Below are positions 16,253 to 60,668 of a stretch of DNA of 64,000 bases, piece by piece. The notes below the pieces were generated by a model. The model worked only from the letters and a program-made list of their open reading frames with translations, had not been told where the DNA came from and searched no databases. Source of the stretch: Actinomycetota bacterium (GTDB lineage Bacteria; Actinomycetota; Acidimicrobiia; Acidimicrobiales; Acidimicrobilacustridaceae); assembly GCA_016185305.1 (NCBI GenBank), contig JACPNV010000039.1, forward strand, positions 1-64,000, read 5' to 3'. Both the position numbers and the translations under genes were made by a program. The stretch's first letter is position 1, and each line of letters opens with the position of its first letter.

Positions 16253-17077
16253 TTACCAGCCCCGGAACTCCGGGTCGCGGCGTTCGGCGAAGGCGAGCAT
16301 CCCCTCCTTGGCGTCGCCGGTCGCGCTCACGGCTTCCTGGGCCAGGGCCTCTTCCTCGAATGCGGTCTCGCGGCTCGACTCGAACGACCGGTTCAGCAGG
16401 CGCTTGGTCATGGCGAGTGCACGGGTGGGCGCGGCGGCGAGGCGCTCGGCCAGCGCGGCGGTCTCGTTCGAGAGCTCGGCCACGGGAACGACCTTCATCG
16501 CGATTCCGAGAGCGGCCGCGTTCTCGGCTGAGACGTCGTCGCCGAGCAGCAAGAGCTCTTTGGCTTTGTGCAGCCCGACGATCCTCGGCAGCAGGTAGGC
16601 GCCGCCGGCGTCGGGCATGATGCCGCGGCGCACGAACACCTCGATCAGCCGGGCGTGCTCGGCCATCAACACGAAGTCGCACGCGATGGCGAGCTGTGCG
16701 CCGCCACCGGCAGCGGTGCCGTTGATGGCGCCGACGACCGGCTTCTCGCAGTCGAGCACCGCGCCGATCAGCCGTTGCCAGCCGAGCCGGATGATCCGTG
16801 CTGCATCCCCCTGGGCGCGATCGGGCGCACCTTCGGGCCGCGGGGCGAGCTCGGGCCGGGCGCCGCCGAGCTGCGCACCCGTGCAGAAGTGGCGCTCGCC
16901 CGCGGCGGTGAGGACGACGGCGCGCACGTCGAGGCGCCCAGAGCAGTCGTACAAGAGGTCGCCGATGCCGTCACGCATGGCCGCGCTCATCGCATTGCCG
17001 CGGTCAGGCGCGTTGATGGTGATGGTCGCGATGTCGCCGTCGACCGCGAACAGGATGGGGTCGGAATCGTTGCTCAC
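16253..17077 (-). CDS. Enoyl-CoA hydratase/isomerase family protein
   Basis: A 274-residue crotonase. Motifs are HFCTGAQLGG and GTAAGGGAQLAIACDFVL for the oxyanion hole and VFVRRGIMPDAGGAYLLPRIVG for the substrate loop, the latter resembling isomerase-type crotonases (Asp in PDAGG) rather than hydratases. Start GTG 17077 follows GGGGAG. A class A operator (17121-17134) lies in the divergent interval shared with the SDR/acyl-CoA dehydrogenase operon, suggesting co-regulation in steroid or fatty-acid breakdown. Confidence 0.87.
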   Translation of the reverse strand: MSNDSDPILFAVDGDIATITINAPDRGNAMSAAMRDGIGDLLYDCSGRLDVRAVVLTAAGERHFCTGAQLGGARPELAPRPEGAPDRAQGDAARIIRLGWQRLIGAVLDCEKPVVGAINGTAAGGGAQLAIACDFVLMAEHARLIEVFVRRGIMPDAGGAYLLPRIVGLHKAKELLLLGDDVSAENAAALGIAMKVVPVAELSNETAALAERLAAAPTRALAMTKRLLNRSFESSRETAFEEEALAQEAVSATGDAKEGMLAFAERRDPEFRGW

Positions 17078-17120
17078 GGGCTCTCCCCTGTTGGCAGGAC
17101 GGGCGGACCGTACCGTAGTG

Positions 17121-17134
17121 TGACACGAACGTCA
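17121..17134. promoter_or_regulatory. Class A operator TGACAC-GAA-CGTCA
   Basis: Imperfect palindrome TGACACGAACGTCA followed by GATTT, located between the divergent crotonase (start 17077) and SDR (start 17181). The same 14 bases plus GATTT recur at 36741-36754, and variants are at 35647 and 41174. Confidence 0.7.
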
Positions 17135-17180
17135 GATTTCGTTCGGTGGCCGCGGCTGCGGGACGGCAGGGGGAGGTTCC

Positions 17181-18101
17181 ATGGGTCTGTTCGACCGGAG
17201 GGTGGCGATCGTGACGGGCGCCGGTCGCGGCATCGGGCGAGCGGAAGCCCTGCTGCTCGCGTCCGAAGGCGCTTCGGTCGTGGTCAACGACCTCGGCGGA
17301 GGAGCGGCCGGGGACGGCGCCGACCAGTCCCCGGCCCAGCAGGTCGTGGACGAGATCACCGGCGCCGGAGGGAAGGCGGTGGCGAACTTCGGCAGCGTCT
17401 CGTCGTTCACGGATGCCGAGGCGCTCGTTCAGCAGGCGGTCGATGCCTACGGGCAGCTCGACATCCTCATCAACAACGCGGGCATCTTGCGCGACGCCAT
17501 GAGCTTCTCGATGACCGAGGACGAGTGGGACGCGGTCATCGATGTCCACCTCAAAGGTCATTTCGCCACGACGCACTTCGCCGGCATCCACTGGCGCGCT
17601 CGCTCGAAGGAGAGTGGCGAGCCGGTCAACGGCGCCATCGTGAACACCGCTTCCGAGTCGGGGCTGTACGGCAACGCCGCCCAGGCGAACTACGCGGCGG
17701 CAAAGGCGGGCATCGCGTCGATGACGATCGTGACCGCGCGCGAGCTCGAGCGCTACGGCGTGCGCGTGAACGCCATCGCACCGGTCGCTCGCACGCGGCT
17801 GACCGAAGCGATCGCCGGCGACCACATGAAGCCCAAGGAGAACGACTTCGATCGTTTCGCACCAGAGAACGTCGCTGCCGTCGCGTGCTGGCTCGCCTCC
17901 GACCTCGCCGCCGGCATCAGCGGCCAGGTCGTGAAGGTGCAGGGCGGCGTGATCCAATTGCTTGAAGGCTGGCGGCCGCTCACCGAGGCGACTGCCGACA
18001 AGCCGTGGACCATCGACGGTGTCGAAGGCGTGCGCGACACGTTGCTCGCCGCAGCCGACGGCTCGATCCCCCCGTTCTTCTTTCCCAGCCCGGACTCCTG
18101 A
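17181..18101 (+). CDS. 17-beta-HSD/MFE-2-type short-chain dehydrogenase (ChsB1-like)
   Basis: A 306-residue NAD-dependent 3-hydroxyacyl-CoA dehydrogenase of the multifunctional-enzyme-2 type. The Rossmann motif is TGAGRGIG (residues 12-19), then VVVNDLGG specifying NAD, NNAG (98-101), catalytic Ser at 158 or 160, Tyr171 and Lys175 (YAAAK). The sequence resembles mycobacterial Rv3502c/ChsB1, which oxidises steroid side-chain hydroxyacyl-CoAs. It is followed without gap by two acyl-CoA dehydrogenase subunits, the same neighbourhood as Rv3502c-FadE26-FadE27. This supports a role in one beta-oxidation cycle. The class A operator lies 47 bp upstream. Confidence 0.85.
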   Translation: MGLFDRRVAIVTGAGRGIGRAEALLLASEGASVVVNDLGGGAAGDGADQSPAQQVVDEITGAGGKAVANFGSVSSFTDAEALVQQAVDAYGQLDILINNAGILRDAMSFSMTEDEWDAVIDVHLKGHFATTHFAGIHWRARSKESGEPVNGAIVNTASESGLYGNAAQANYAAAKAGIASMTIVTARELERYGVRVNAIAPVARTRLTEAIAGDHMKPKENDFDRFAPENVAAVACWLASDLAAGISGQVVKVQGGVIQLLEGWRPLTEATADKPWTIDGVEGVRDTLLAAADGSIPPFFFPSPDS

Positions 18102-19268
18102 ATGCAGATCGTCACCAGCCCGGAAGACGAGGCGTTCCTCAACGAGCTGCGAGCGTTCCTCGACGCGAACTGCCCGCCCGAAGCGAAGCCGAACCGCGAC
18201 TTCCTCGGCGAGGAAGACGCGGGCATCCCCCAGTGGGCCCGAGAATGGCAAGCAACGCTCTTCGACAACGGGTGGATGGTGCCGTCGTTCTCGCCCGAGC
18301 TCGGTGGGCGCAACGCGACGCCGTCGCAGACCTTCGTCTACCTGGAGGAGCTGGCGAGACAGCGAGTTGTCCGCTCGGTGCACTTCGGCGGCTATGCCAT
18401 CGTCGGGCCGAGCCTGCTCGAGTTCGGCAACGACGAGCAGAAGGCGATGGCTCCCGGCGCCATCCGGGGCGACACCGTGTGGTGCGTCGGCATGAGCGAG
18501 CCCGATGCCGGGTCCGACCTCGCGGCCCTCAAGACCCGGGCCGTCGACGACGGCGACTCGTTCATCGTGACCGGGCAGAAGGTGTGGACGTCGTACGCGC
18601 CGGTTGCCGACAAGTGCTTCTGCTACGTCCGCACCGATCCCGACGCACCGAAGCACAAGGGCATCAGCGTCCTCATCGTCGACCTCGACTCGCCGGGCAT
18701 CGACATCCGCCCGCTGGTGCAGATCACCGGCTCCGCCGAGTTCGCCGAGGTGTTCTTCGACGACGTGGTCGTCCCCAAGGCGAACCTGGTCGGCGATCTC
18801 AACGACGGTTGGCGCATCACCATGGGCTCACTTGCCCACGAGCGGGGCGGGTTGTGGGTCGAGGGCGTGGTGGGCGCGCAGCGGGCGCTCGAAGGTTTGT
18901 GTGATCTGGTGAAGCGCAACGGCCTTGGCGGCGACCCGGCCGTCCGCCGGCGGCTCGGAGGATTGTACGAGCGGGTGGAGTCGCTCCGGGCGCTCGGCTA
19001 CAAGGGCCTCTCGTCGTTCGCACAAGGCAGCTCAGCGCCCGAGCACTCGTACATGAAGCTGGCCACGAGCGAGCTGCGGCAGGAACTGTCCGAATACGGG
19101 ATGGATCTGCAGGGCGCCTTCGGCGCGGCGGTCGCCGACCAGGCCAGCGACGAAGGCCGGTGGTGGCGGGGATTCTTCGTCTCCATCGCCGCCTCGATCG
19201 GCGGGGGCACGTCCGAGATCCAGCGCAACGTCGTGGCCACCCGGGTGCTCGGGCTCCCGCGATCATGA
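18102..19268 (+). CDS. Acyl-CoA dehydrogenase, subunit 1 of a tandem pair
   Basis: A 388-residue flavoprotein of the acyl-CoA dehydrogenase fold. It has WCVGMSEPDAGSDLAALKT and VWTSYAPVADKCF (FAD/substrate loop) and the C-terminal FAD-binding end SIGGGTSEIQRNVVATRVLGLPR. Steroid-type dehydrogenases are built from two different subunits encoded in tandem, one supplying the FAD-adenine site and the other the catalytic acid. This looks like the former. The start codon follows directly on the SDR stop, and its own stop overlaps the next ATG (ATGA). Confidence 0.9.
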   Translation: MQIVTSPEDEAFLNELRAFLDANCPPEAKPNRDFLGEEDAGIPQWAREWQATLFDNGWMVPSFSPELGGRNATPSQTFVYLEELARQRVVRSVHFGGYAIVGPSLLEFGNDEQKAMAPGAIRGDTVWCVGMSEPDAGSDLAALKTRAVDDGDSFIVTGQKVWTSYAPVADKCFCYVRTDPDAPKHKGISVLIVDLDSPGIDIRPLVQITGSAEFAEVFFDDVVVPKANLVGDLNDGWRITMGSLAHERGGLWVEGVVGAQRALEGLCDLVKRNGLGGDPAVRRRLGGLYERVESLRALGYKGLSSFAQGSSAPEHSYMKLATSELRQELSEYGMDLQGAFGAAVADQASDEGRWWRGFFVSIAASIGGGTSEIQRNVVATRVLGLPRS

Positions 19269-20278
19269 CCGCCGACTTCAGGCTGAGCGAGGAGCAGGAC
19301 CTCCTTCGCGAAACGGCGCGCTCGGTGCTCGCGCGCGAATGCCCGCCTGCGCTGGTGCGCGCGCACATCGACGATCCGGCGGTCGTCGAGTCCTTGTGGG
19401 AGAAGCATCTGCACGAGTGGGCTGCCCTCGGCGACGGGCCACTCGTCGATCTCTGCATCTTCGCCGAAGAGCTCGGTGCAGCGGTCGTGCCCGGTCCATG
19501 CTTCGCGACCGCGGCGCTGGGGCTGCCACTGTTGCGCGCCGTGGCGGACGAGCGTGCGGACGCTGTTGCCGAAGGCGAGCTGGTCGCGACGGCTGCCGTT
19601 GCCGGCCGCGACGGCACGTGGGAGCTCAACGACGATGGCGTGCGGACCTTCGTGCTCGAGGCCGACCGCGCCGACCTGGTAGCGATCGTGCTGCCGGGTC
19701 CGGCGCTCGCGGTGGTGGACGCCGCCTCACGAACAGCGCGTGAGATCAAGACCCTCGACACGACGCGCCGTGTCTTCGAGATCGACATCACCGCCGAAGA
19801 TCGCGCCGTGGCGAAGGCCGTCGACGCGGCCGCGCTTGCGTCGGTGCTGCGGCGCGCAACGGTCGCGCTGGCTGCCGAGCTGGTCGGCACGACCCGATGG
19901 CTCCTCGAGCACACCATCGAGTACGCGAAGGCGAGAGAGCAGTTCGGGAAGCCCATCGGCTCGTTCCAGGGGTTGCAGTGGAAGATCGTCGACATGGCGC
20001 TCGACGCCGAGCGGGCGACGGCCGCCGCGTACTACGCGGCCATGGCGATCGACGCGGGTGAACCAGATGCCTTGCGGGCCGCTCACGTCGCCAAAGCAAC
20101 CGCGGGTGTTGCGGCTCGGCACTGTGCGAAGAGCGGGATGCAGGTCTACGGCGGCATCGGGTACACGTGGGAGAACGACCTGCACCTCTACCTGCGCCGC
20201 GCCTTCGCGAGCGACTACCTGCTGGGCTCGTCGACCTATCACCACGACCGATTGGCCCAACTGCTGCTCGACGCCTGA
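19265..20278 (+). CDS. Acyl-CoA dehydrogenase, subunit 2 of a tandem pair
   Basis: A 337-residue dehydrogenase subunit. The middle domain is shortened and lacks a normal SEPxxGSD loop. The C-terminal part has REQFGKPIGSFQGLQWKIVDM and VYGGIGYTWENDLHLYLRRA, where the Glu of TWE occupies the catalytic-base position. It complements the upstream subunit and the pair probably forms an alpha2-beta2 enzyme like mycobacterial ChsE complexes. Translation is coupled through a 4-nt overlap. Substrate is inferred to be a steroid side-chain or ring-derived CoA ester. Confidence 0.88.
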   Translation: MTADFRLSEEQDLLRETARSVLARECPPALVRAHIDDPAVVESLWEKHLHEWAALGDGPLVDLCIFAEELGAAVVPGPCFATAALGLPLLRAVADERADAVAEGELVATAAVAGRDGTWELNDDGVRTFVLEADRADLVAIVLPGPALAVVDAASRTAREIKTLDTTRRVFEIDITAEDRAVAKAVDAAALASVLRRATVALAAELVGTTRWLLEHTIEYAKAREQFGKPIGSFQGLQWKIVDMALDAERATAAAYYAAMAIDAGEPDALRAAHVAKATAGVAARHCAKSGMQVYGGIGYTWENDLHLYLRRAFASDYLLGSSTYHHDRLAQLLLDA

Positions 20279-31811: not shown

Positions 31812-32258
31812 TCAACGTCGACGCCATTGGGGGAGGGCCAGCAGGTCTTCCCCCTCGGCGCGCTCGACGGGCGCGAACACGACCTCGACCGGCTCGCCGA
31901 CCTCGATGGTGTGCGGGTCGACGCTGTTCAACGGCGCGCCCGCCTCGGTCACGAGGTTGCCGACCATGCGCAGCGTCGGGTCTTCATCCAGCGCGACGAC
32001 GATCACGCCGTAGGGTGCCTGCTCGGCATAGGCCGGCAACAACGGCGGATGGGGGACGGCGAACGACCACACCGTGCCCCGGCCCGACAGGAGCTCCCAC
32101 TCCGCGTCGAACGATCGGCACGACGGGCACATCGGTCGTGGTGGCATCCGGCGCCGGCCGCACGACGCGCACCGCTGCACACGGAGCTCGCCCGCGGCGC
32201 AGTACGCCCAGAACGCACGGGAGTCGTCATCGGGGGCCGGCAAGAGCATCGGCATCAT
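31812..32258 (-). CDS. DUF35/OB-fold zinc-ribbon protein, partner of the Ltp2-like enzyme
   Basis: A 148-residue protein. An N-terminal helix is followed by a zinc ribbon (CASCGRRRMPPRPMCPSC) and an OB fold (GRGTVWSFAVPH...PYGVIVVALDE). DUF35 proteins form complexes with thiolase-like enzymes and are needed for the retro-aldol cleavage in steroid side-chain degradation. The ATG shares one base with the upstream gene's stop (TGATG), so synthesis is coupled to the Ltp2-like enzyme. Confidence 0.85.
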   Translation of the reverse strand: MMPMLLPAPDDDSRAFWAYCAAGELRVQRCASCGRRRMPPRPMCPSCRSFDAEWELLSGRGTVWSFAVPHPPLLPAYAEQAPYGVIVVALDEDPTLRMVGNLVTEAGAPLNSVDPHTIEVGEPVEVVFAPVERAEGEDLLALPQWRRR

Positions 32259-33424
32259 CAGTTCCTCAAGAGCAGCGCGCTCGTCGGCACGCCCTCGCCG
32301 CTCGTCACCAGGCACGTCTCGGCTCCCTCCACCTGCGAGCACGACTGCCCGCGCATCTGGTTGACGCCTTCGACGATCAGGTTGAAGCCGTGCACATACG
32401 CCTCGGACAGGCCGCCGCCGCTGGTGTTGACGGGCAGCCGGCCCTCGAGCCCCAGCGTGTTGCCGTCGGTGAACCCGGCGCCCTCGCCGCGGTCGCAGAA
32501 CCCGTAGCCTTCGAGCGACAGGATGACCAGCGGTGAGAACGCGTCGTAGAGCTGGGCGACGTCGATGTCGTGGGCGCCGAAGTCGGCGTGGCGCCACAGC
32601 AGTTCGGCGCACGCGTACGACGGCCCCACGAGCGGGTCGTCGTTGAAGTAGTTGGTCATCGTCTGGTGCTGCGCGGGAATCGACTGGGCGAACGAATGGA
32701 TGTACACCGGTTGCTGCCGGCAGTCGTCGGCCCGATCGCGTCGCACGATGACGACCGCGCCCGCGCCATCGGACTCGAGGCAGTTGTCGAAGAGGCAGAG
32801 CGGTTCGGAGATCCAGCGCGCGCCCATGTACTGGTCGCGCGTCAGCTCTTTCGCGTGCATCATCGCCCCGGGGTTGCGGTTGGCGTGCGAGCGAACCGCC
32901 GTTGCCACGTTGCACAGGTGCTCGCGCGTTGCACCGAACTCGTGCATGTACCGCCGGGTGAGGACGGCTATCTCGTCGACCGGCCGCAGCAACCCGAACG
33001 GGCGCGACCATTGCTGGTTCCCGTGCACCTGATCGCGCACCCCGGCCCAGGGACGTGATGCCGCGGCCCCTCGCTTGCGTGACCGCCACGCGACCGCGAC
33101 GTTGCACTGGCCGGCCGCGACGGCCATCGCCGCGTTCCCCACGACGCCACAACCGGCGCCGCCGCCGTAGCCCACCTGGCTGAACCACGTGACCGCGTCC
33201 ATCCCGAGGTTGCGGGCGATCTCGATCTCCTCGGTGCCTTCCATCGTGTACGAGCTGAGCCCGTCCACCTCCGACGGATCGATGCCGGCGTCTTCCAGCG
33301 CGATCAGGATGGCTTCCAGCGCGAGCACCTTCTCCGGCTGCTCGAGGTGCTTGGCGAACGCCGTCTGGCCGACGCCGACGATCGCAGTGCGATCCTTGAT
33401 CGGCAGCGCGTCATCGTCGTGCAC
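32258..33424 (-). CDS. ltp2: Ltp2-like aldolase (thiolase superfamily)
   Basis: A 388-residue thiolase-fold protein that aligns well, from memory, with mycobacterial Ltp2 (Rv3540c): AIVGVGQTAFAKH, EVDGLSSYTMEGTEEIEIAR, FSQVGYGGGAGCGVVGNAAMAV, ARRYMHEFGATREHL, YDAFSPLVILSLEGYGFC and LPVNTSGGGLSEAYVHG. Ltp2 with its DUF35 partner cleaves the C17 side chain by retro-aldol reaction using conserved tyrosines rather than the thiolase cysteine set. The second gene of an operon: the synthetase ends 11 nt upstream and the DUF35 gene overlaps its stop. Assignment as the Ltp2 orthologue rather than a paralogue is not certain. Confidence 0.8.
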   Translation of the reverse strand: MHDDDALPIKDRTAIVGVGQTAFAKHLEQPEKVLALEAILIALEDAGIDPSEVDGLSSYTMEGTEEIEIARNLGMDAVTWFSQVGYGGGAGCGVVGNAAMAVAAGQCNVAVAWRSRKRGAAASRPWAGVRDQVHGNQQWSRPFGLLRPVDEIAVLTRRYMHEFGATREHLCNVATAVRSHANRNPGAMMHAKELTRDQYMGARWISEPLCLFDNCLESDGAGAVVIVRRDRADDCRQQPVYIHSFAQSIPAQHQTMTNYFNDDPLVGPSYACAELLWRHADFGAHDIDVAQLYDAFSPLVILSLEGYGFCDRGEGAGFTDGNTLGLEGRLPVNTSGGGLSEAYVHGFNLIVEGVNQMRGQSCSQVEGAETCLVTSGEGVPTSALLLRN

Positions 33425-33434
33425 GGGTTGATTG

Positions 33435-35630
33435 CTAGCGCAGCACGACGAGCGCGTCGAGCGCGACCGCGCCCTTGCCCTTCGGGCGCACGACGAGGGG
33501 GTTGATGTCGAGCTCCGCGATGGCGTCGGCGTTGTCGAGGGCGAGCCGTTGCACCTTCAGGATCGTGTCGACCAGCGCCTTCACGTCGGCGGGCTCGTGG
33601 CCGCGTGTCCCCTCGAGCAGCGCGAACCCCTGCACCTCGCGCACCATGCGCTCGGCTTCGGCGCGGTCGAACGGCGGCACCCGGAACGCCACGTCGCCGA
33701 GCACTTCGACGAACACGCCGCCCAGCCCGAACATCACGATCGGGCCGAACAGATCGTCGGTCGACACGCCGACCACGCACTCGACCCCGCCAGAGATCTG
33801 CTCGCAGACGAGCACGCCTTCTACGCGGGCACGCCGGTCGGCCTTCTCGGCCGCCGCGAGCAGCTCGTTGTACGACCGCCGGACCTCGGTTGCGGTGTTC
33901 ACACCGACTCGCACCAAGCCGGCGTCGCTCTTGTGCAGCAGATCGGGCGACGCGACCTTCAACACGACGGGATAGCCGAGGGCACCGGCCGCCTTTGCCG
34001 CCTCGGTCGCCGAGGTGGCCAGCACGTCGTTCGTCGTGCGGATGCCGTAGGCCCGCAGCAGCTCCTTCGACGAGTGCTCGCTCAACGCCTTCGGCGACTC
34101 GCCCTCGTCGTTCGCGAGCAGCGGCTGCACCTTGCGCCGCGCCGGCGACGCCTTCGTGGGCATGGTGGCGAACGGTGACGAGTACCGCGCCTGGAAGTCC
34201 CAGTAGTCCACGTAGGCCTTGGCCGCCTGCACGCAGTTGTGGAAGGTGCGGAAGGTGACGAGCTTGCGTGACGTCAACAAGATGTCGGTGTAGGCAGGGT
34301 CAGCGGTGTCGGGCGATCCCCAGATCACGAAGATCGGCTTGTCGGTCGTCTCCGCCACCGCGGCGAGGTCGGTGGCCAGCGGCCGGCTCATCGACGCCAG
34401 TGCGCCCGTGATCGGGCAGATGATGATGTCGACATCGGGGTCGGCGACGAGCCGATCGAGGATCTTCCTCCCTCGCTCGTCGGTGCACGGCGGCCCGCCG
34501 TTGTCGACGGGGTTCGACACCCGGAGGTAGGGCGGGATCCATTGGTGGAGTGCCTCTTGGGTCTTGGCCGACAGCTCGGGCAGGTGCAGTCCCGCGGCCG
34601 CACACAGGTCGGCCATGTGCGCGCCGGTGCCGCCCGAGATCGCGTAGATGCAGAACCTCGGGGGCATGGCCGCGCTCTTCGGTGCCGCGCTCTTCGGTGG
34701 CTTGGTGCGGGCGAACGTGGCGGCGACATCGGTGAGCTCGTCGAGCCCGTCGACGCGCGTGATGCCGTACTGGCCGAACACCGCGTCGACCACCTTGTCG
34801 GACCCGGTGAGGTGGCCGGTGTGCGACTTGGCCATCGACTCGCCCTCGGCGGTGCGGCCGACCTTCACCATGACGATGGGTGTCTTGGCTTGCGCGGCCC
34901 GGTCGGCCGCCAGCATCAGCGACCGGCCGTCCTTGAAGCCCTCGATGTAGGCGGCGACGGCGCCGGTGCCGTCGAGGCTGGCGAAGTAGGCGGCGAAGTC
35001 GGCGAACTCCAGGTCGGCCTCGTTGCCGGTCGGTGCCCAGTGCGAGAGGCGTACGCCGAAGCCCTGGGCCTGGAACACCGGCCGACCCTGATGTCCCGAC
35101 TGGGTGATGAGCGCGATCGCCTTGCCGTCGATGTCGTCGCGGAACGTCTCGAACGCGTTGAGGTTGGTGTTCGGGCCGAGGAGGTGCGTCTCGCCGGTCG
35201 CGATGAGCTTCTCGAGCCGGTCCTGCAACGCTTCACCCTCGGCCCCGACCTCTGCGAATCCAGCCGAGAAGATCACCGCGTACCTCGGCTTGCGCTCGAC
35301 CACCGTCTCGAACATCCCGACCGCGTCACCGACGAGGATCACGGCGAGGTCGAGCTCGCCGTCGATGTCGAGGATCGAGTCCGCGCACCGAACCCCGTCG
35401 ACCTCGTCGTAGTTCGGGTGGACCGGGATGACGGCGGCGCCGGCGCGGTCGCCCCAGGCCTTGATCTTGCGCCACATGTTGGTGTTCGGCTTGCGTTCGG
35501 AGGCTGACGCGCCGATGACGGCGACGGTGCGGGGGTGGAAGAAGCGGTCGAGTTCGAGGTGTCGGAGCTGCAGCGGGCGCCCGGTGCAGTCGAGGCGGCT
35601 GCTGTCGAGGCGTTCGGTGGGAGTCGGCAT
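33435..35630 (-). CDS. ADP-forming-type acyl-CoA synthetase (CoA-binding + ATP-grasp)
   Basis: A 731-residue fused enzyme. The N-terminal CoA-binding domain (FFHPRTVAVIGASASERKPNTN) is followed by two succinyl-CoA-ligase-like domains with the phosphohistidine loop KSHTGHLTGSDKVVDAVF. The C-terminal ATP-grasp domain includes SSKELLRAYGIRTTNDVLATS, GYPVVLKVASPDLLHKSDAG and GVECVVGVSTDDLFGP. It forms acyl-CoA from acid, CoA and ATP with ADP release. First gene of an operon with Ltp2-like and DUF35 genes, so it may activate a steroid-derived acid. A TAGACT -10 lies 7 nt before ATG 35630 (leaderless) with a class A operator directly upstream. Confidence 0.87.
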   Translation of the reverse strand: MPTPTERLDSSRLDCTGRPLQLRHLELDRFFHPRTVAVIGASASERKPNTNMWRKIKAWGDRAGAAVIPVHPNYDEVDGVRCADSILDIDGELDLAVILVGDAVGMFETVVERKPRYAVIFSAGFAEVGAEGEALQDRLEKLIATGETHLLGPNTNLNAFETFRDDIDGKAIALITQSGHQGRPVFQAQGFGVRLSHWAPTGNEADLEFADFAAYFASLDGTGAVAAYIEGFKDGRSLMLAADRAAQAKTPIVMVKVGRTAEGESMAKSHTGHLTGSDKVVDAVFGQYGITRVDGLDELTDVAATFARTKPPKSAAPKSAAMPPRFCIYAISGGTGAHMADLCAAAGLHLPELSAKTQEALHQWIPPYLRVSNPVDNGGPPCTDERGRKILDRLVADPDVDIIICPITGALASMSRPLATDLAAVAETTDKPIFVIWGSPDTADPAYTDILLTSRKLVTFRTFHNCVQAAKAYVDYWDFQARYSSPFATMPTKASPARRKVQPLLANDEGESPKALSEHSSKELLRAYGIRTTNDVLATSATEAAKAAGALGYPVVLKVASPDLLHKSDAGLVRVGVNTATEVRRSYNELLAAAEKADRRARVEGVLVCEQISGGVECVVGVSTDDLFGPIVMFGLGGVFVEVLGDVAFRVPPFDRAEAERMVREVQGFALLEGTRGHEPADVKALVDTILKVQRLALDNADAIAELDINPLVVRPKGKGAVALDALVVLR

Positions 35631-35637
35631 CGGCCGG

Positions 35638-35643
35638 AGTCTA
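35638..35643 (-). promoter_or_regulatory. -10 TAGACT, 7-nt spacer to ATG 35630 (leaderless promoter)
   Basis: Read on the minus strand, TAGACT is followed by CCGGCCG and the ATG of the synthetase. The class A operator starts 4 bases upstream of this hexamer, where a bound repressor would block RNA polymerase. Confidence 0.55.
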
Positions 35644-35646
35644 ACC

Positions 35647-35660
35647 TGACACAGGCGTCA
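35647..35660. promoter_or_regulatory. Class A operator TGACAC-AGG-CGTCA
   Basis: TGACACAGGCGTCA preceded by AGTCTAACC. The 15-bp block AGTCTAACCTGACAC is repeated exactly at 41165-41179. It lies between the synthetase operon (start 35630, minus) and the zinc-ribbon protein (start 35724, plus). Confidence 0.7.
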
Positions 35661-35723
35661 GCTTTCCCGGTGGGCCAGACTGTGTCCCTCGACCCAACGG
35701 TGCCGACGAGAACGAGGTGATGG

Positions 35724-36695: not shown

Positions 36696-36740
36696 AGCCG
36701 GGCGTGCCGAGTCGTCCGTCCGTCGGCCGGCGGCCTAACC

Positions 36741-36754
36741 TGACACGAACGTCA
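36741..36754. promoter_or_regulatory. Class A operator TGACAC-GAA-CGTCA
   Basis: CTAACC precedes and GATTT follows the 14-bp core, which is identical to the site at 17121-17134. It lies 20 bp before the thiolase start GTG 36774 and covers the presumed transcription start. Confidence 0.7.
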
Positions 36755-36773
36755 GATTTGAGAGGAGCCCGCC

Positions 36774-38003
36774 GTGGCCGTCCGAGACGCCGTCATCGTC
36801 GACACCCTGCGCACCCCGATCGGTCGCCGCAACGGCCAGCTCGCTACGTGGCACCCCACCGATCTGCTCGCCCATGCGCTCGGTGCTCTGGTCGAGCGCA
36901 CGGGCGTCGACCCCGAGCGCATCGACGACGTCATCGGCGGTTGCATCACCCAAACCGGCGAGCAGGGGTGCAACGTGACGCGCAACGCGTGGGTGGCCGG
37001 CGGTTTGCCGCAGTCGGTTTCGGCCACGACGGTCGACCGGCAGTGCGGGTCGTCCCAGCAAGCCGTCCACTTCGCGGCCCAAGGCGTCCTCAGCGGTTGT
37101 TATGACCTCGCCATCGCGTGTGGCGTCGAGTCGATGACCCGCGCCCCTATGGCATCCAACGCCATGAGCAAACCGGTGACGATCGGGAAGGGCGACGGCA
37201 CCTTCGAGATCGGCGGCACCGGCCCGTTCTCTCCCGGCTTCCTCGACGCGTGCAACGGCCAACTCATGACGCAGTTCGAGGTCGCGCAGATCCTCGCCGA
37301 CAAGCACGGGATCGATCGCGAGGCCATGGACGAGTTCTCGGCCCGCAGCCACCAGCGGGCGCACGCCAGCAGCACGAGCGGGCACTTCGCCAAGGAGATC
37401 GTGGCCGTGCCGCTGAAGCGGGCCGACGGCACCGAGACCGGCGAGCTGATGACGGCCGACGAAGGCATCCGGCCCGACACCACGATCGAGCGCCTTGCGC
37501 AACTGTCGAGCGCGGCGTCGTGGGACCCGACCCTCGCGCCCGCCATCACCGCCGGCAACTCGTCGCAGGTGAGCGACGGGGCGGCGGCCATGCTCGTCGC
37601 CGACGCCGGCGTCGCCGAGAAGCTGGGTCTTCCTGTCCGGGCCCGTATCAAGCACATGGTGGTCGGCGCGGACGACGCGGTCCTCGTGCTCAGCGCGCCC
37701 AACCCGGTCACGCGCAAGCTCCTCGCCCGCACCGGGCTGAAGATCGACGACTTCGATGCGATGGAGTGCAACGAGGCGTTCGCCGCCGTCGCGCTCATCT
37801 GGGCGCAGGAGTTCGAGCCCGATCCTGAGCGCTACAACCCGCGCGGCGGGGCGATCGCCATCGGTCATCCCCTCGGCGCGAGTGGCGTCCGCATCATGAC
37901 GACACTGCTCAACCACCTCGAAGCCACTGGGGGGAGGCTTGGCTTCCAGACCATGTGCGAGGGCGGCGGCCAAGCGAACGCCACCGTCATCGAGGTAGTT
38001 TGA
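36774..38003 (+). CDS. Acetyl-CoA acyltransferase (thiolase, FadA5/FadA6-like)
   Basis: A 409-residue degradative thiolase cleaving 3-ketoacyl-CoA with CoA. Nucleophile Cys91 (TTVDRQCGSSQQA), His365 (IAIGHPLGASG) and Cys395 (TMCEGGGQAN) are all present. The covering loop and ending resemble mycobacterial steroid thiolases FadA5 and FadA6. I cannot decide between them. Start GTG 36774 has AGGAG 8 nt upstream. The class A operator just upstream puts it in the same regulon as the synthetase operon. A zinc-ribbon/TM protein gene follows after 4 nt. Confidence 0.9.
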   Translation: MAVRDAVIVDTLRTPIGRRNGQLATWHPTDLLAHALGALVERTGVDPERIDDVIGGCITQTGEQGCNVTRNAWVAGGLPQSVSATTVDRQCGSSQQAVHFAAQGVLSGCYDLAIACGVESMTRAPMASNAMSKPVTIGKGDGTFEIGGTGPFSPGFLDACNGQLMTQFEVAQILADKHGIDREAMDEFSARSHQRAHASSTSGHFAKEIVAVPLKRADGTETGELMTADEGIRPDTTIERLAQLSSAASWDPTLAPAITAGNSSQVSDGAAAMLVADAGVAEKLGLPVRARIKHMVVGADDAVLVLSAPNPVTRKLLARTGLKIDDFDAMECNEAFAAVALIWAQEFEPDPERYNPRGGAIAIGHPLGASGVRIMTTLLNHLEATGGRLGFQTMCEGGGQANATVIEVV

Positions 38004-38007
38004 GCGG

Positions 38008-38301
38008 GTGCTGGTCTGCCCACGCTGCCGAGGATTGGTCGAGCCAGGGTCGCCCCTGTGCCCGACCTGTGCCTATGACCCGCACACCGGCGACACCGCG
38101 CTCAACCCGCCCCGGACCGAGACGGGAGACGCCGAGCCGAGCACCTTGTCGGTGGTCGTCTCCGGGCTGAGCATGCTGCTCGCCATCGGCCTGGTGGTGT
38201 TCGCGGCGGTCTACGCGTTCAACTCCATCGTCGTCGAGCGGCCAGCGACGACGCGGACCTTCGCGACCGAGAGCAACGGCTCGCCGACCACCACCCGCTG
38301 A
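38008..38301 (+). CDS. Small zinc-ribbon, single-TM protein
   Basis: A 97-residue protein with an N-terminal zinc ribbon (CPRCRGLVEPGSPLCPTC), a short linker, a membrane span (VVVSGLSMLLAIGLVVFAAVYAF) and a Thr/Ser-rich tail. Start GTG 38008 lies 4 nt after the thiolase stop, so it is co-transcribed with it. Its architecture is a reduced version of the protein at 35724-36695. Function unknown. Confidence 0.7.
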   Translation: MLVCPRCRGLVEPGSPLCPTCAYDPHTGDTALNPPRTETGDAEPSTLSVVVSGLSMLLAIGLVVFAAVYAFNSIVVERPATTRTFATESNGSPTTTR

Positions 38302-38317
38302 CGGCCGACCAGACCAA

Positions 38318-38432: not shown

Positions 38433-38447
38433 TGCGGTCGGGTGGGT

Positions 38448-39680
38448 TCAGTTGCGGGGCAGGTTGATCGCTCGGTCGGCGATGATGTTCTTCTGCACCT
38501 CGGTCGTGCCCGCCCCGATCGACGTGTAGCGCTGGAAGACATAGAGCCGGTTCCACGCGCCGCCGTCCACCGCGTCGGGGCCGCCTTTGGCGAGCATGCC
38601 GAGCGGGCCGAGGAGGTCGACCGCCAGCTCAGCCAGCGTCTGGGCGAGGTGGCTCCACTGCAGCTTGGCGATCTGCACCTCGGGCCACTTCTTCTGGTTC
38701 TTGAGGATCTTCGAGAGCGCTCGGTAGTTGAGGAGCTTCGTGTACTCGATCTCGGTGTGGGCGCGAGCGATGCGCTCGCGGATCTCGGGATCGTCGAGCG
38801 CGGCGGGGTTGACCGCCTTGGCGAGATTGATCATGGCGTCGAGGTCGGAACGCATGCCGATGGCGAGCGACGCCGTGCCGACGCGCTCGTTCTCTAGCGT
38901 GCCCATGGCGACCTTCCAGCCCTCGCCCTCGCCACCGAGCCGGTAGCTCACCGGCACCCGGGCACCGTCGAAGAACACCTCGCAGAACATCTCCTCGCCG
39001 GCGATGTCTCGTATCGGCCGGATCTCGACGCCGGGCACCTCGAGATCGACGATCAGCGCCGTGATTCCGTCGTGCTTGCGTTTCTCGGCGATCGCATCGG
39101 CGTCGGTGCGGACGAGGAACAGGCCCCACTTGGCGATGTGCGCGGACGAGATGAACGTCTTTTGCCCGTCGAGCACGTAGTCGTCGCCGTCGCGGATGGC
39201 AACCGTGCGAAGGTTGGCGAGGTCGCTCCCCGCTTGGGGCTCGGTGAAGCCCTGGCACCAGTGATCGACGGCGTCGAGGATGTTGGGTACCCAACGGTTC
39301 TTCTGCTCGTCGGTGCCCCAACGGATGATCATCGGGCCGATCTGCCACAGGCCGTTGGCGTTGAAGATGCCCGGCGTGCGGTAGCGCGCCATGGTCTCGG
39401 CGTAAATGACCGACTGGGTGACCGTCGCGGCGCGGCCGCCCCACTCGACGGGCCAGTTGTACGCCGCCCACCGGCCCTCGTTGAGCTTGCGCTGCCAGGC
39501 TCGGCGGCGCTCCATCGAACCCATGATGCCGCCGCTGCCCGCCCCGGCGATGTCGTCTCCATCTTCCGCGTCGGGGTCGCTGGTGGCCCACTCGGCCAGG
39601 AACTTCGGGAGGTTCTCGTCGAGCCATGCCGTCAGCTCGTCGCGGAACGTTTCGTCCTCGACCGAGTACGAGAAGTCCAT
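38448..39680 (-). CDS. Acyl-CoA dehydrogenase
   Basis: A 410-residue acyl-CoA dehydrogenase with FTEPQAGSDLANLRT and QKTFISSAHIAKWGLFLVRT (FAD and substrate loops) and C-terminal YTSIGAGTTEVQKNIIADRAINLPR (FAD adenine binding). The insert GDDIAGAGSGGIMGS near residue 45 is a Gly/Asp-rich loop. Start ATG 39680 is preferred: -10 TAGTCT ends 7 nt upstream, giving a leaderless transcript. It may form a heteromer with the subunit at 41303-42403, from which a low-GC insert now separates it. That pairing is inferred. Confidence 0.88.
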   Translation of the reverse strand: MDFSYSVEDETFRDELTAWLDENLPKFLAEWATSDPDAEDGDDIAGAGSGGIMGSMERRRAWQRKLNEGRWAAYNWPVEWGGRAATVTQSVIYAETMARYRTPGIFNANGLWQIGPMIIRWGTDEQKNRWVPNILDAVDHWCQGFTEPQAGSDLANLRTVAIRDGDDYVLDGQKTFISSAHIAKWGLFLVRTDADAIAEKRKHDGITALIVDLEVPGVEIRPIRDIAGEEMFCEVFFDGARVPVSYRLGGEGEGWKVAMGTLENERVGTASLAIGMRSDLDAMINLAKAVNPAALDDPEIRERIARAHTEIEYTKLLNYRALSKILKNQKKWPEVQIAKLQWSHLAQTLAELAVDLLGPLGMLAKGGPDAVDGGAWNRLYVFQRYTSIGAGTTEVQKNIIADRAINLPRN

Positions 39681-39687
39681 GCGGGTG

Positions 39688-39693
39688 AGACTA
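39688..39693 (-). promoter_or_regulatory. -10 TAGTCT, 7-nt spacer to ATG 39680 (leaderless promoter)
   Basis: On the minus strand TAGTCT is followed by seven bases and the start codon. Unlike the equivalent promoter at 35638 no operator half-site lies directly upstream, which is where the low-GC insert begins. Confidence 0.45.
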
Positions 39694-39774
39694 CCTCGCC
39701 CCACCGGTCGATGTTGAAGCCGGTGCCACTCGCAAGACGCGGGATTCATTCACATCTCGAGTACCCAGTCAGTG

Positions 39775-41107: not shown

Positions 41108-41173
41108 ACCGCTATACCCCGCTTGGTGAACGACCCCGCGCCGCGTCTCGCAAAGCGTCCGACCAGTCTAACC

Positions 41174-41187
41174 TGACACCGACGTCA
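41174..41187. promoter_or_regulatory. Class A operator TGACAC-CGA-CGTCA
   Basis: Preceded by AGTCTAACC, giving a 15-bp block identical to that at 35638-35652. It is about 115 bp upstream of the acyl-CoA dehydrogenase start at 41303. The minus-strand TAGACT embedded in this block has no gene start downstream of it. Confidence 0.7.
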
Positions 41188-41302
41188 GTTATCTCGACAC
41201 ACGAAGGCGCCGGACGCACGGCCGCCGTGAGGCACGAGCTTGCGAGCGAGGCCCTGCGCGGCGGACAAGAGCGAGACGGCGGGGCCTGGCCCGGGTGCGC
41301 AA

Positions 41303-42403
41303 GTGGAGTTCACGTTCAGCGACGAGCAGGAGCAGTTGCGGGCCGCGGTGCGCGACTTCCTCGACCGCGAGGCGCCGCCGGCCTACGTCCGCAGCATGCT
41401 CGACGATTCCGGCGGCATCACCAGCGCGATGTGGGCCAAGGTCGTCGAGCTCGGGTGGACCGGCATGCTCGTGCCGGTCGAGCACGGCGGGCTCGGCATG
41501 GGCCTGGTCGATCTGCTCCCCGTGCAGGAAGAGATGGGGCGCACGACGTTCGCCGGCCCGTTCTTCTCGTCGGCGGTGCTCGCCACGTTGGCCGCGTCGC
41601 GGCTCGGCTTGCACGACCGGTTGCGGGCGCTGGCGACCGGCGCCACCCGCGGCGCGGTCGCACTGGACGAAGCGGGCCACGGCGACGTGGTCGATCGGGT
41701 GCGGACGCGAGCTAGCCGCAAGACGGGACGGTGGCTCCTCCATGGCGAGAAGCCGGTCGTGCTCGATGGGCACACGGCTGACTGGGTGCTCGTCGTGGCG
41801 CGCACGCAAGCGGGCATCGGAACGTTTGCGATCGAGGCGCCGGGCAAGCGCGGGCTGGCCGAGCCCGTGCCGACGTGGGACCCGACGCGCAAGGTGGCGC
41901 GCCTCGTCCTCGACGGTGTCGACGCCGAGCCGGTCGGCTCCGACGAGGACCAGACCGCGGCGTGGCGCCGGGTCGTCGACGACGCCTGCATCGCCCTGTG
42001 TGCCGAGCTGATCGGCACGATGGAGGCCGCCAACGGGCTCGCCGTCGAGTACGCCAAGTCGCGCGTGCAGTTCGATCGTCCCATCGCCACGTTCCAGGTC
42101 ATCAAGCACAAGGCCGCCGACATGCTCCACCGCCAAGAGCTGGCACGGGTCGGCACGCACTACGCGGCCTGGGCATCCGACACCGACGACTCCGCCCGTG
42201 AGCAGGCCGCGGCGATGGCGAAGGCGTTCGTCGCCGAGGCCGCCAACTACGTCACCAGCGAGTGCATCCAGATCCACGGCGGTGTCGGCTTCACGTGGGA
42301 CTGCGACGCGCACCTCCTCTACAAGCGGGCCAAGCAGAACGACCTGCTTCTTGGCTACCACGGCATCCACCGCGAGCGCGTTGCCGACCTCGTCCTCGGC
42401 TGA
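41303..42403 (+). CDS. Acyl-CoA dehydrogenase (Asp at catalytic-base position)
   Basis: A 366-residue dehydrogenase subunit from GTG 41303 (VEFTFSDEQEQLRAAVRDFLD). The SEPxxGSD loop is missing (DEAGHGDVVDRV in its place). The C-terminal domain has AVEYAKSRVQFDRPIATFQVIKHKAADM and IHGGVGFTWDCDAHLLYKRA, in which Asp stands where the partner-type subunits have Glu. It is the same subunit type as 19265-20278 and needs a partner for FAD binding. The acyl-CoA dehydrogenase at 38448-39680 is a candidate. Alternative start 41240 adds 21 low-quality residues. Confidence 0.87.
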   Translation: MEFTFSDEQEQLRAAVRDFLDREAPPAYVRSMLDDSGGITSAMWAKVVELGWTGMLVPVEHGGLGMGLVDLLPVQEEMGRTTFAGPFFSSAVLATLAASRLGLHDRLRALATGATRGAVALDEAGHGDVVDRVRTRASRKTGRWLLHGEKPVVLDGHTADWVLVVARTQAGIGTFAIEAPGKRGLAEPVPTWDPTRKVARLVLDGVDAEPVGSDEDQTAAWRRVVDDACIALCAELIGTMEAANGLAVEYAKSRVQFDRPIATFQVIKHKAADMLHRQELARVGTHYAAWASDTDDSAREQAAAMAKAFVAEAANYVTSECIQIHGGVGFTWDCDAHLLYKRAKQNDLLLGYHGIHRERVADLVLG

Positions 42404-44684: not shown

Positions 44685-45935
44685 TCAGACGATGCCGGTG
44701 GCGATGTGGTCCTCCAGCTCGCTGCCGGTCAAACCGACCAGCCCGCACCAGATGTCTTCGTTGTGCTCGCCCAACTGGGGTGCGCTCGACGGTTCGATGG
44801 TCTCCTCGCCGGTGAACCGCGGGAAGGGCGCCTGCTGGCGCACGGGACCGATGGTCGAGTCGTCGATGGTGATGAGGTCGTGGCGAGCGATCATGTGCTC
44901 GTCGGCTGCGATGTCGGCCGCGGTGTACGCGGTCGCGACGGGGACGTCATGCTCGACGCACGCCGCCTCGATCTCGGCGGCGCTCAGGGTGCGCGTCCAC
45001 GCCGCGACGAGGTCGTTGATCTCGTCCGAGCGCTGGGCTCGATCGGCGAGGCGGCCGAAGCGCGGGTCGCTGGCAAGGTCGGGCCGGTCCATCGCGGCGC
45101 ACAGCCGCCGGAAGTTGGTGTCAGAGCCGGCGACGATGCACACGAACCGGCCGTCGGCGCTGGGGTAGTTGTCGAGGGGCGCCGAGTTGGCGAGCCGGTT
45201 CCCTTCCCGCCCGCGGACGAGGCCGAGCTTGTCGTAGGCGGCGATGGTCCATTCGAGGACGCGCAGCACCGAACCGTAGAGGCATGCATCGATGACTGCG
45301 CCCCGCCCTGCGCGTTCGTCGCGGCCCGCGTCGCGCCGGTAGAGCGCGGCTGTGGCGGCCTGGGCGGCGAACACGCCGGTGAGGTAGTCGCTTATCGTCA
45401 CGCCGACGCGCACGGGGGGTCGGTCGGGGTAGCCGGTGAGATGGAGGAGACCGCCGTAGCCGATGCCGAGCCGGTCGAGGCCGGGGCGGCTGGACTTCGG
45501 GCCGTCCTGGCCGAACACCGAGATGCGCACCATCACGATCCGCGGGTCGAGATCGTGCGGTCCGATGTTCCACTTCTCCATGGTGCCGGGCCGGAAGTTC
45601 TCGCAGATCACATCGGCATGCTCGCCGAGCCGGCGGAACAGCTCTTGCCCGGCCGGCTGGCGGAGGTCGCAGGTGACGCTCTTGCGCCCCCGCCCCTCGA
45701 CTGCCCAGAACAGCGAGTAACCGGGATCGTCGGGCCCGTGGTTCTCGCCGGTGCCAGCCGTGCCCGACCCGTCGCGCCGCACGAACGGCCCGATGGCGCG
45801 CATGAAGTCGCCCGCCCCCGGCTGCTCGACCTTGATGACCTCCGCCCCCTGCTCGCCGAGCAGGCCGGCGCAGAACGGGGCGGAGATGCGCGTGCCGGCA
45901 TCGATGACCCGGACGCCGGTCAACGGTCCACTCAT
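44685..45935 (-). CDS. CaiB/BaiF family (class III) CoA transferase
   Basis: A 416-residue family III CoA transferase moving CoA between carboxylic acids. The N-terminal GVRVIDAGTRISAPFCAGLLGEQGAEVIKVEQPGAGD is characteristic, RPGLDRLGIGYGGL contains the catalytic Asp, and RGRKSVTCDLRQPAGQ is the CoA-binding region. Family members act in bile acid, carnitine and steroid degradation. Start ATG 45935. It is followed by the c-di-GMP enzyme gene on the same strand after 49 nt. The preceding zinc-ribbon gene ends 12 nt upstream and may be in the same operon. Confidence 0.9.
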   Translation of the reverse strand: MSGPLTGVRVIDAGTRISAPFCAGLLGEQGAEVIKVEQPGAGDFMRAIGPFVRRDGSGTAGTGENHGPDDPGYSLFWAVEGRGRKSVTCDLRQPAGQELFRRLGEHADVICENFRPGTMEKWNIGPHDLDPRIVMVRISVFGQDGPKSSRPGLDRLGIGYGGLLHLTGYPDRPPVRVGVTISDYLTGVFAAQAATAALYRRDAGRDERAGRGAVIDACLYGSVLRVLEWTIAAYDKLGLVRGREGNRLANSAPLDNYPSADGRFVCIVAGSDTNFRRLCAAMDRPDLASDPRFGRLADRAQRSDEINDLVAAWTRTLSAAEIEAACVEHDVPVATAYTAADIAADEHMIARHDLITIDDSTIGPVRQQAPFPRFTGEETIEPSSAPQLGEHNEDIWCGLVGLTGSELEDHIATGIV

Positions 45936-58143: not shown

Positions 58144-58181
58144 GATCGATGCGCCCCTCAGGGGCGGGAGACCAGGGAGTC

Positions 58182-58928
58182 ATGGGAATCACCCAAGCCA
58201 TCGACGCCAATGGCGTGGCCGAGGTCGTGATGGACCGCCCGCCGGTCAACGCGCTGACCGTCGCCGGCTGGTTCGAGCTGGCCGACACCATCCAGTCGCT
58301 CGGCGAGAGGCCCGAGGTGCGAGCGGTCGTCCTGCGGGCCGAGGGGCGGGGTTTCAACGCTGGCGTCGACATCAAGGAGATGCAGGCACCCGAGGGATTC
58401 GATGCGCTCATCGGCGCGAATCGGGGATGCTTCGCGGCGTTCGCGGCCGTGTACGAGTGCGCCGTGCCGGTGATCGCCGCCGTGCACGGCTATTGCCTCG
58501 GCGGGGGGATCGGCCTGGTCGGCAACAGCGACATCATCGTCGCGTCGGAAGATGCGACGTTCGGGTTGCCGGAGGTCGATCGAGGTGCTCTTGGCGCGGC
58601 AACCCATCTCGCGAGGCTCGTGCCCCAGCACAAGATGCGGGCGATGGTCTACACCGCGGCAACCGCGACGGCACACGAGCTGCTGCGTTTCGGCTCGGTG
58701 CTCAAAGTCGTGCCGTGCGACGAGTTGCGCGCCGCCGCGTTCGAGGTGGCACAGTCGATCGCCGCCAAGAGTCCGACGGTCATGCGCGCTGCGAAGGAGT
58801 CGCTCAACGGCATCGATCTGTGGGATGTGAAGCGCAGCTATCGCTACGAGCAGGGCTTCACCTTCGAGCTCAACCTGTCCGGTGTCTCTGACGAGGCCCG
58901 CGACGCGTTCGTGAACAACGACGACTGA
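58182..58928 (+). CDS. echA20: EchA20, steroid ring D hydrolase (crotonase family)
   Basis: A 248-residue crotonase. It matches EchA20 (Rv3550) over long stretches: AVVLRAEGRGFNAGVDIKEMQ, GANRGCFAAFAAVYECAVPVIAAVHGYCLGGGIGLVGN, VASEDATFGLPEV and YRYEQGFTFELNLSGVSDEARDAF. EchA20 opens ring D of the HIP-derived CoA ester. GGGAG precedes ATG 58182. First gene of the echA20-ipdA-ipdB-ipdC operon. Confidence 0.92.
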   Translation: MGITQAIDANGVAEVVMDRPPVNALTVAGWFELADTIQSLGERPEVRAVVLRAEGRGFNAGVDIKEMQAPEGFDALIGANRGCFAAFAAVYECAVPVIAAVHGYCLGGGIGLVGNSDIIVASEDATFGLPEVDRGALGAATHLARLVPQHKMRAMVYTAATATAHELLRFGSVLKVVPCDELRAAAFEVAQSIAAKSPTVMRAAKESLNGIDLWDVKRSYRYEQGFTFELNLSGVSDEARDAFVNNDD

Positions 58929-58947
58929 CACGACTGACTGGAGCGCG

Positions 58948-60662: not shown

Positions 60663-60668
60663 CCGATC

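What the first reader, a model, noticed from the sequence alone, without database searches (positions are those of the whole stretch)
33435..35630. ADP-forming-type acyl-CoA synthetase at the head of an Ltp2-DUF35 operon
Steroid acids are normally activated by AMP-forming FadD enzymes. Here a fused ATP-grasp synthetase with an intact phosphohistidine loop leads the operon that encodes the side-chain aldolase pair, under a class A operator. It may activate a steroid acid or recover the short acid released by the aldolase.
Basis: inference. Interest (0 to 1): 0.55.

Follow-up and report, generated by a model that had tools for sequence, protein, structure and literature searches.

The report
ADP-forming ligase beside Ltp2-sister aldolase
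An uncultured actinobacterium carries a gene cluster in which an energy-saving, ADP-forming enzyme appears to load a steroid-derived acid onto coenzyme A for a neighbouring carbon-carbon cutting enzyme, a job that known steroid degraders give to an unrelated AMP-forming enzyme; the substrate has not been tested.

Summary
Confirmed, with corrections. 33435-35630 (minus strand, 731 aa) is a fused ADP-forming acyl-CoA synthetase (ACD) with both catalytic histidines, heading ACD > Ltp2-like > DUF35. A 21-bp element recurs without mismatch at three promoters of the cluster. The steroid setting is real: IpdA-type CoA transferase in the window, KshA in the genome, steroid-type acyl-CoA dehydrogenases next door. 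The Ltp2-like gene follows the ACD in 27 of the 80 loci fetched, 27 of 36 in the Acidimicrobiia clade. Corrections: (1) the aldolase gene is a sister clade of Ltp2 (43% to TcLtp2, against 66-74% for true Ltp2 of relatives; YDAF, not YDHF). (2) The commonest partner of the ACD is a PaaG-like crotonase (57 of 80 loci), in the window at 16253-17077 beside the same operator core. (3) The aldolase releases a CoA thioester, so 'recovery of the short acid' is unlikely. New clue: beside true ltp2 in relatives lies an AMP-forming CasI-like ligase (3 of 5 regions read); the ACD takes that slot. A steroid side-chain acid is the likeliest substrate (about 0.5). New variant of a known kind.

The parts
33435..35630 (-). 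Fused alpha-beta ADP-forming acyl-CoA synthetase (ACD), 731 aa, head gene
32258..33424 (-). Ltp2-sister aldolase candidate, 388 aa, GTG start; Tyr293 (YDAF) and Tyr343 kept, thiolase nucleophile position is Gly
31812..32258 (-). Stand-alone DUF35 (zf-ChsH2 + OB), 148 aa, C-x2-C-x10-C-x2-C zinc ribbon; probable partner of the aldolase
35641..35661 (+). Operator-like element CTAACCTGACACAGGCGTCAG upstream of the ACD
36735..36755 (+). Same element upstream of the FadA5-like thiolase
41168..41188 (+). Same element upstream of the acyl-CoA dehydrogenase at 41240
17120..17135 (+). Operator core GTGACACGAACGTCAG between crotonase (-) and SDR (+)
16253..17077 (-). PaaG-like crotonase; its orthologue lies directly downstream of the ACD in 57 of 80 loci
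17181..18101 (+). SDR of the PRK07791 subfamily (over cut-off); the link to Hsd4A is recalled
18102..19268 (+). Acyl-CoA dehydrogenase, best PDB match Tcur3483
19160..20278 (+). Partner acyl-CoA dehydrogenase subunit (ORF limits; true start probably further in)
36774..38003 (+). Thiolase, FadA5-like (best PDB FadA5, near tie with 1ulq)
38448..39749 (-). Acyl-CoA dehydrogenase, best PDB matches 4x28_A and Tcur3483
41240..42403 (+). Acyl-CoA dehydrogenase, probable partner subunit (Tcur3481 is the fourth-best PDB hit, not the best)
44685..45935 (-). Family III CoA-transferase, in the conserved block of several relatives
58149..61745 (+). EchA20-IpdA-IpdB-IpdC-like operon, marker of steroid C/D-ring degradation (names partly recalled)

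Best explanation
The ACD is an ADP-forming acid:CoA ligase that activates a steroid-derived carboxylic acid, most likely a C17 side-chain acid, and feeds a beta-oxidation and retro-aldol branch encoded around it. Proposed course: ATP phosphorylates His566 and then His270 (inferred from the ACD family), an acyl phosphate forms and CoA displaces the phosphate. The paired acyl-CoA dehydrogenases introduce a double bond; the PaaG-like crotonase isomerises or hydrates, perhaps with a MaoC hydratase that lies beside the same operator elsewhere in the genome; the Ltp2-sister aldolase with its DUF35 partner cuts the C-C bond and leaves a ketone or aldehyde plus a short acyl-CoA. Shown: gene content, intact residues, shared operator, conservation, steroid setting. 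Inferred: substrate, direction of reaction, order of steps. The ACD sits where relatives with true Ltp2 keep a CasI-like AMP-forming ligase, so it looks like a non-orthologous replacement that costs one phosphoanhydride bond instead of two.
For: Domains and residues; 84 of 84 orthologues keep His270, Glu230, His566 and Asp708 and share QSGHQGRP, while 7 of 8 more distant ACDs read QSG[AG]xG. Conservation: Ltp2-like gene (>=60%) within 4 kb downstream in 27 of 80 loci, crotonase in 57 of 80, both in 18 of 80; in the Acidimicrobiia clade of the ACD tree 27 of 36. Aldolase: best PDB match TcLtp2 6ok1, E 9.6e-88, both catalytic Tyr positions kept, thiolase nucleophile position Gly; NCBIfam PRK07855 over cut-off, 512 vs 469 bits. 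Operator: three perfect sites; 16 matches in the genome (one palindrome counted on both strands) vs 2 for the reversed pattern; CTGAC-N6-GTCAG upstream of the ACD in 14 of 29 loci with the Ltp2-like gene, 1 of 55 others, background 0.98%. Steroid setting: IpdA-type gene in the window, 7.4e-99 to 6con; all 11 relatives with the ACD at E<1e-150 have IpdA, against 46 of 61 overall; KshA_C in 8 of 10 ACD genomes; Ipd genes within the 10-kb flanks of the ACD in 4 of 80 loci, all Streptomycetaceae. Ligase slot: CasI-like AMP ligase beside true ltp2 or its chsH2-like gene in G007, G058 and G040, 3 of 5 regions read; CasI-like hit of 587 bits or more in 10 of 14 genomes with true Ltp2 but 1 of 7 with only the sister, Fisher p 0.024.
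Against: The genome has 27 AMP-binding hits, 26 over cut-off; of 10 tested, 4 pass PRK07798 and one is closest to CasI at 658 bits, cut-off 900, so AMP-forming ligases may do the job. The aldolase is not Ltp2 and may act on something else. 53 of 80 ACD loci lack the Ltp2-like gene downstream, all Streptomyces and Actinomadura loci among them. The IpdA association is weak (p 0.03, related genomes). Exclusion between the two aldolase clades is not significant (1 shared genome, p 0.22). The 587-bit line was drawn after the scores were seen, and G000 itself is the exception. No assay exists.
Confidence: 0.5

Rival explanations
1. The ACD activates a non-steroid acid, for example a hydroxycinnamate: a bacterial feruloyl-CoA synthetase is also a fused ACD and works with a crotonase-type hydratase/aldolase.
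For: PMC6388921 (passages) describes such an enzyme, FCS1, with the same three Pfam domains. The ACD-crotonase pair is the most widespread feature here, 57 of 80 loci.
Against: The crotonase is PaaG-like; the p-hydroxycinnamoyl-CoA hydratase/lyase model is not among its 25 best families. The neighbours are steroid-type dehydrogenases, a FadA5-like thiolase and, in four loci, Ipd genes. A separate aldolase would not be needed.
Confidence: 0.2
2. The ACD activates an acid of ring degradation (HIP or a later one) rather than a side-chain acid, as a stand-in for FadD3.
For: Ipd genes lie within 10 kb of the ACD in 4 Streptomycetaceae loci without the Ltp2-like gene; the 41240 and 19160 dehydrogenases resemble IpdE2 below cut-off.
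Against: FadD3-model proteins pass the cut-off in 7 of 10 ACD genomes. No aldolase step is known to me in that branch (recalled).
Confidence: 0.17
3. The ACD runs backwards on acetyl- or propionyl-CoA made by the branch, to form ATP, or re-activates a short acid.
For: ACDs are reversible (recalled) and the closest solved relatives act on C3-C4 acids.
Against: Orthologues share an invariant QSGHQGRP where 7 of 8 distant ACDs have small residues. The aldolase family yields a CoA thioester, not a free acid (PMC12329534, passages). Co-occurrence with fermentation genes was not looked for.
Confidence: 0.1

Closest known systems
Ltp2-ChsH2(DUF35) steroid side-chain aldolase (TcLtp2, PDB 6ok1)
   Same: Thiolase fold, DUF35 partner with C4 zinc ribbon, both catalytic Tyr positions kept, no thiolase nucleophile
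   Different: 43% identity to TcLtp2 (true Ltp2 of relatives 66-74%); YDAF not YDHF; DUF35 not fused to MaoC; no MaoC gene adjacent
CasI steroid-22-oyl-CoA synthetase (AMP-forming)
   Same: Takes the same place beside the aldolase in three related genomes
   Different: Unrelated fold and chemistry: AMP-forming adenylating enzyme against ATP-grasp ACD; the relatives' CasI-like proteins stay below the model's cut-off
ADP-forming 4-hydroxybutyrate-CoA ligase (PDB 8wzu) and archaeal ACDs
   Same: Same domain set, phosphohistidines and Glu kept
   Different: NCBIfam equivalog cut-offs not reached (380 of 1300 bits); clade motif QSGHQGRP; other neighbours
Bacterial feruloyl-CoA synthetase FCS1 (fused ACD; PMC6388921, passages)
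   Same: Same Pfam domains; used together with a crotonase-type hydratase/aldolase
   Different: Crotonase here is PaaG-like; setting is steroid-type. The two sequences were not compared directly

Membership tests
ADP-forming acyl-CoA synthetase (ACD) superfamily | CoA-binding, Succ_CoA_lig and ATP-grasp_5 domains | tested here: met
   all three over cut-off
ADP-forming acyl-CoA synthetase (ACD) superfamily | Phosphohistidine and partner catalytic residues | tested here: met
   84 of 84 orthologues; residue roles recalled from archaeal ACD work
ADP-forming acyl-CoA synthetase (ACD) superfamily | ADP-forming CoA ligation | not testable with these tools
   needs an assay
Known acetate, 3-hydroxypropionate and 4-hydroxybutyrate ligase equivalogs | NCBIfam equivalog cut-off | tested here: not met
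   382 of 1200, 339 of 1300, 380 of 1300 bits
Ltp2 steroid aldolase | NCBIfam PRK07855 subfamily cut-off | tested here: met
   512 vs 469 bits; whether TcLtp2 itself passes this model was not run
Ltp2 steroid aldolase | YDHF motif with Tyr344 | tested here: not met
   YDAF in all 32 ACD-linked copies with a readable motif (one partial, two genomes fetched twice); the Tyr344 equivalent is kept
Ltp2 steroid aldolase | Lies within the clade of true Ltp2 | tested here: not met
   separate clade with support 100; 43% vs 66-74% to TcLtp2
Ltp2 steroid aldolase | Operon with ChsH1 and a MaoC-DUF35 fusion (ChsH2) | tested here: not met
   stand-alone DUF35, no MaoC adjacent; note that G059, with true Ltp2, also has a separate DUF35
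Ltp2 steroid aldolase | Retro-aldol cleavage of a steroid acyl-CoA | not testable with these tools
   needs an assay
SCP2-type thiolase | Nucleophilic Cys | tested here: not met
   Gly aligned to the Cys of 6esq, read by eye from the alignment
9,10-seco steroid degrader (organism) | IpdAB and KshA | tested here: met
   KstD and Hsa genes not tested
Feruloyl-CoA synthetase with hydratase/lyase | Hydroxycinnamoyl-CoA hydratase/lyase partner | tested here: not met
   model not among the 25 best for the crotonase; activity itself not testable

The most novel reading that the evidence does not exclude
Acidimicrobiia have an alternative steroid side-chain module: an ADP-forming ligase, a PaaG-like crotonase, steroid-type heteromeric dehydrogenases and a sister aldolase of Ltp2 with a free-standing DUF35, under one shared operator. 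It would replace the CasI/ChsH/Ltp2 set or handle a different side chain, at half the ATP cost per acid.
Probability: 0.35. Interest if true: 0.7.

Novelty: new variant of a known kind. Interest (0 to 1): 0.52.

Why it matters
Steroid acids are normally activated by AMP-forming FadD/Cas ligases. An ADP-forming ligase in that slot would be the first such route I could find (searches returned no paper describing one; the library holds open-licence papers only). It would change the energy balance of sterol and bile-acid breakdown in Acidimicrobiia, most of which are known here only as metagenome-assembled genomes, and it defines an unassayed sister family of Ltp2 with a dedicated ligase that can be tested directly and might serve steroid biocatalysis.

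Tried and rejected
Short-acid recovery: rejected as the main reading because the aldolase product is a thioester. FadD3 replacement: weakened, FadD3-model proteins coexist in 7 of 10 ACD genomes. Feruloyl-CoA synthetase: weakened by the crotonase type and the neighbours, not excluded. Alpha-methylacyl-CoA racemase for 44685-45935: rejected, best matches are family III CoA-transferases. Mutual exclusion of the two aldolase clades: looked striking, but is not significant. Crotonase as hydratase: in 57 copies none has a Glu in the segment where I recall the hydratase Glu144 to lie, and 33 of 57 fit PD.GG under a strict pattern; no alignment to a real hydratase was made, so hydratase or isomerase stays open. 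KstR and KstR2 motifs (recalled): no exact KstR site and no convincing KstR2 site in the window. The regulator that binds the element was not identified; a TetR near the ACD in Streptomyces and Actinomadura has no relative in the other held loci. Plasmid records hold only relatives under 60% identity (165 records, best listed row 35%). Structure prediction was not run, because sequence matches already settled the folds. Holert 2018 (PMC5790920: abstract seen) had no passage for the terms Acidimicrobi, Ltp2, side chain degradation or CoA ligase.

Full report
OBSERVATION. The ORF at 33435-35630 is on the minus strand, 731 aa. It holds CoA_binding_2, Succ_CoA_lig and ATP-grasp_5 domains, and its best solved relative is an ADP-forming 4-hydroxybutyrate-CoA ligase, E 6.3e-90. 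It reaches no NCBIfam equivalog cut-off for acetate, 3-hydroxypropionate or 4-hydroxybutyrate ligases, so the substrate cannot be read from the family. GC by codon position (0.68, 0.47, 0.93) is that of a real gene in this genome. His270, Glu230, His566 and Asp708 are kept in 84 of 84 orthologues at 53% identity or more (one genome is in twice); the same 84 share QSGHQGRP, whereas of the 8 more distant ACDs one reads QSGHNGRP and seven read QSG[AG]xG. The roles of these residues are recalled from work on archaeal ACDs.

OPERON. Ten bases downstream lies a 388-aa thiolase-fold gene and, overlapping its end, a DUF35 protein. The first matches TcLtp2 (6ok1_A, E 9.6e-88) and the second the ChsH2 DUF35 of the same complex (6ok1_B, E 1.1e-15). 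In TcLtp2 the catalytic residues are Tyr294 of YDHF and Tyr344, with His296 in the oxyanion hole, whose replacement cost 14-fold (PMC12329534, passages). The window protein keeps both tyrosines but reads YDAF; the thiolase nucleophile of 6esq aligns to Gly (read by eye), so it is not a thiolase.

NOT LTP2 PROPER. All 32 ACD-linked copies (60% or more) with a readable motif read YDAF; one of them is partial, two genomes were fetched twice, and one further copy was too short to read. In the 40-60% band 13 read YDHF, one YDCF and four YDAF; below 40% there are 4 YENF copies and 19 YDAF copies without the second Tyr. With rows under 300 residues left out, the tree puts 32 ACD-linked rows (window included) in one clade with support 100 next to a clade that holds TcLtp2 and 13 YDHF rows, with the four YENF rows inside that second clade (quick method, long branches flagged). 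Identity to TcLtp2 is 66-74% for the 13 YDHF copies and 43% for the window protein. For scale, Ltp2 of Comamonas and Thermomonospora share 64% (PMC12502768, passages). In G007, G039, G041 and G059 MaoC-type hits lie about 0.9-2.1 kb from true ltp2; in the six genomes with only the sister gene that were searched (G000, G002, G006, G008, G009, G044) none lies within 6 kb of it.

CONSERVATION. The Ltp2-like gene follows on the same strand within 4 kb in 27 of 80, the crotonase within 1.5 kb in 57 of 80, both in 18 of 80. In the Acidimicrobiia clade of the ACD tree 27 of 36 have the Ltp2-like gene; four of the other nine (L057, L074, L082, L084) run out of contig within about 1 kb. In several loci the block also holds the FadA5-like thiolase, both acyl-CoA dehydrogenase subunits and the CoA-transferase. 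In the window the crotonase is not in the operon; its orthologue at 16253-17077 lies beside the operator core at 17120. Among 61 relatives (G000 included), 14 hit the ACD at E<=1e-60, 11 of them at E<1e-150.

OPERATOR. CTAACCTGACACNNNCGTCAG occurs without mismatch before the ACD, the FadA5-like thiolase and the 41240 dehydrogenase; 0.03 expected at up to 3 mismatches. The short core CTGAC-N6-GTCAG with one mismatch allowed is no better than chance in the window (4 found, 3.04 expected), so the claim rests on the longer form. In the genome TGACRNNNNCGTCAG gives 16 matches (one palindrome counted on both strands) against 2 for the reversed control; one lies between a MaoC gene and an SDR 55% identical to the window's 17181 SDR. 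Upstream of the ACD the core occurs in 14 of 29 loci with the Ltp2-like gene and 1 of 55 without; background 0.98%.

STEROID SETTING. The CoA transferase at 58948 matches 6con_A at 7.4e-99, the next family at 6.1e-25; that 6con is IpdAB is recalled. KshA_C is found in G000 and in 8 of 10 ACD genomes; of 8 genomes without IpdA one has a moderate hit (3.8e-19) and two have weak ones. The dehydrogenases 38448 and 18102 match 4x28_A and Tcur3483 well above all else; that 4x28 is ChsE4-ChsE5 is recalled, while PMC11153573 (passages) says such heterotetramers oxidise the cholesterol side chain. For 41240 the Tcur3481 subunit is only the fourth-best hit, and the FadA5 match is a near tie with another thiolase. 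All 11 ACD genomes (E<1e-150) have IpdA, 46 of 61 do overall; p 0.03 without correction for kinship.

LIGASE SLOT. A CasI model (steroid-22-oyl-CoA synthetase) passes its cut-off in 0 of 22 genomes, but strong hits lie beside true ltp2: the next gene in G007, the facing neighbour in G058, divergent from the chsH2-like gene in G040; not adjacent in G039 and G059. Hits of 587 bits or more occur in 10 of 14 genomes with true Ltp2 and in 1 of 7 with only the sister (G000 itself), p 0.024; G056 has both aldolases and is counted with the 14, G005 has neither and is not counted; the line was drawn after the scores were seen. This suggests, without proving it, that the ACD replaces an AMP-forming ligase. 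Against it stand 27 AMP-binding hits in the genome, 4 of 10 tested passing PRK07798 (its link to FadD19 is recalled).

VERDICT. A genuine ACD in a conserved steroid-type cluster, paired with an unassayed sister of Ltp2. The mechanism up to the CoA ester follows from family knowledge; the substrate is inference. New variant of a known kind.

Noticed in passing
window 53195-54802 (-): A second thiolase/DUF35 pair; the thiolase is NCBIfam PRK06059 lipid-transfer protein at 728 bits, cut-off 424.
   Followed up: partly
window 24385-28116 (+): 1243-aa regulator joining a cyclase-like N-terminus, a BTAD domain and an AAA_16 ATPase.
   Followed up: no
window 38300-38450: About 60 bases of GC-rich sequence in two near-identical head-to-tail copies between a small zinc-ribbon ORF and the dehydrogenase at 38448 (seen).
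   Followed up: no
G000:C79 3349 and 17829 (loci L148, L238): A full palindrome AACCTGAC-N6-GTCAGGTT and a second site beside a MaoC gene, an SDR like that at 17181 and, about 3 kb on, an AMP-forming ligase: probably the same regulon.
   Followed up: partly
L092, L095, L107, L123: Streptomycetaceae with Ipd-like genes and the ACD-crotonase pair in one cluster; L095 and L123 also hold a thiolase of another type.
   Followed up: partly
many relatives of genus g12 and others: IpdA matches run a few residues past a TGA stop in many genomes; probably the alignment reading on past the true end.
   Followed up: no
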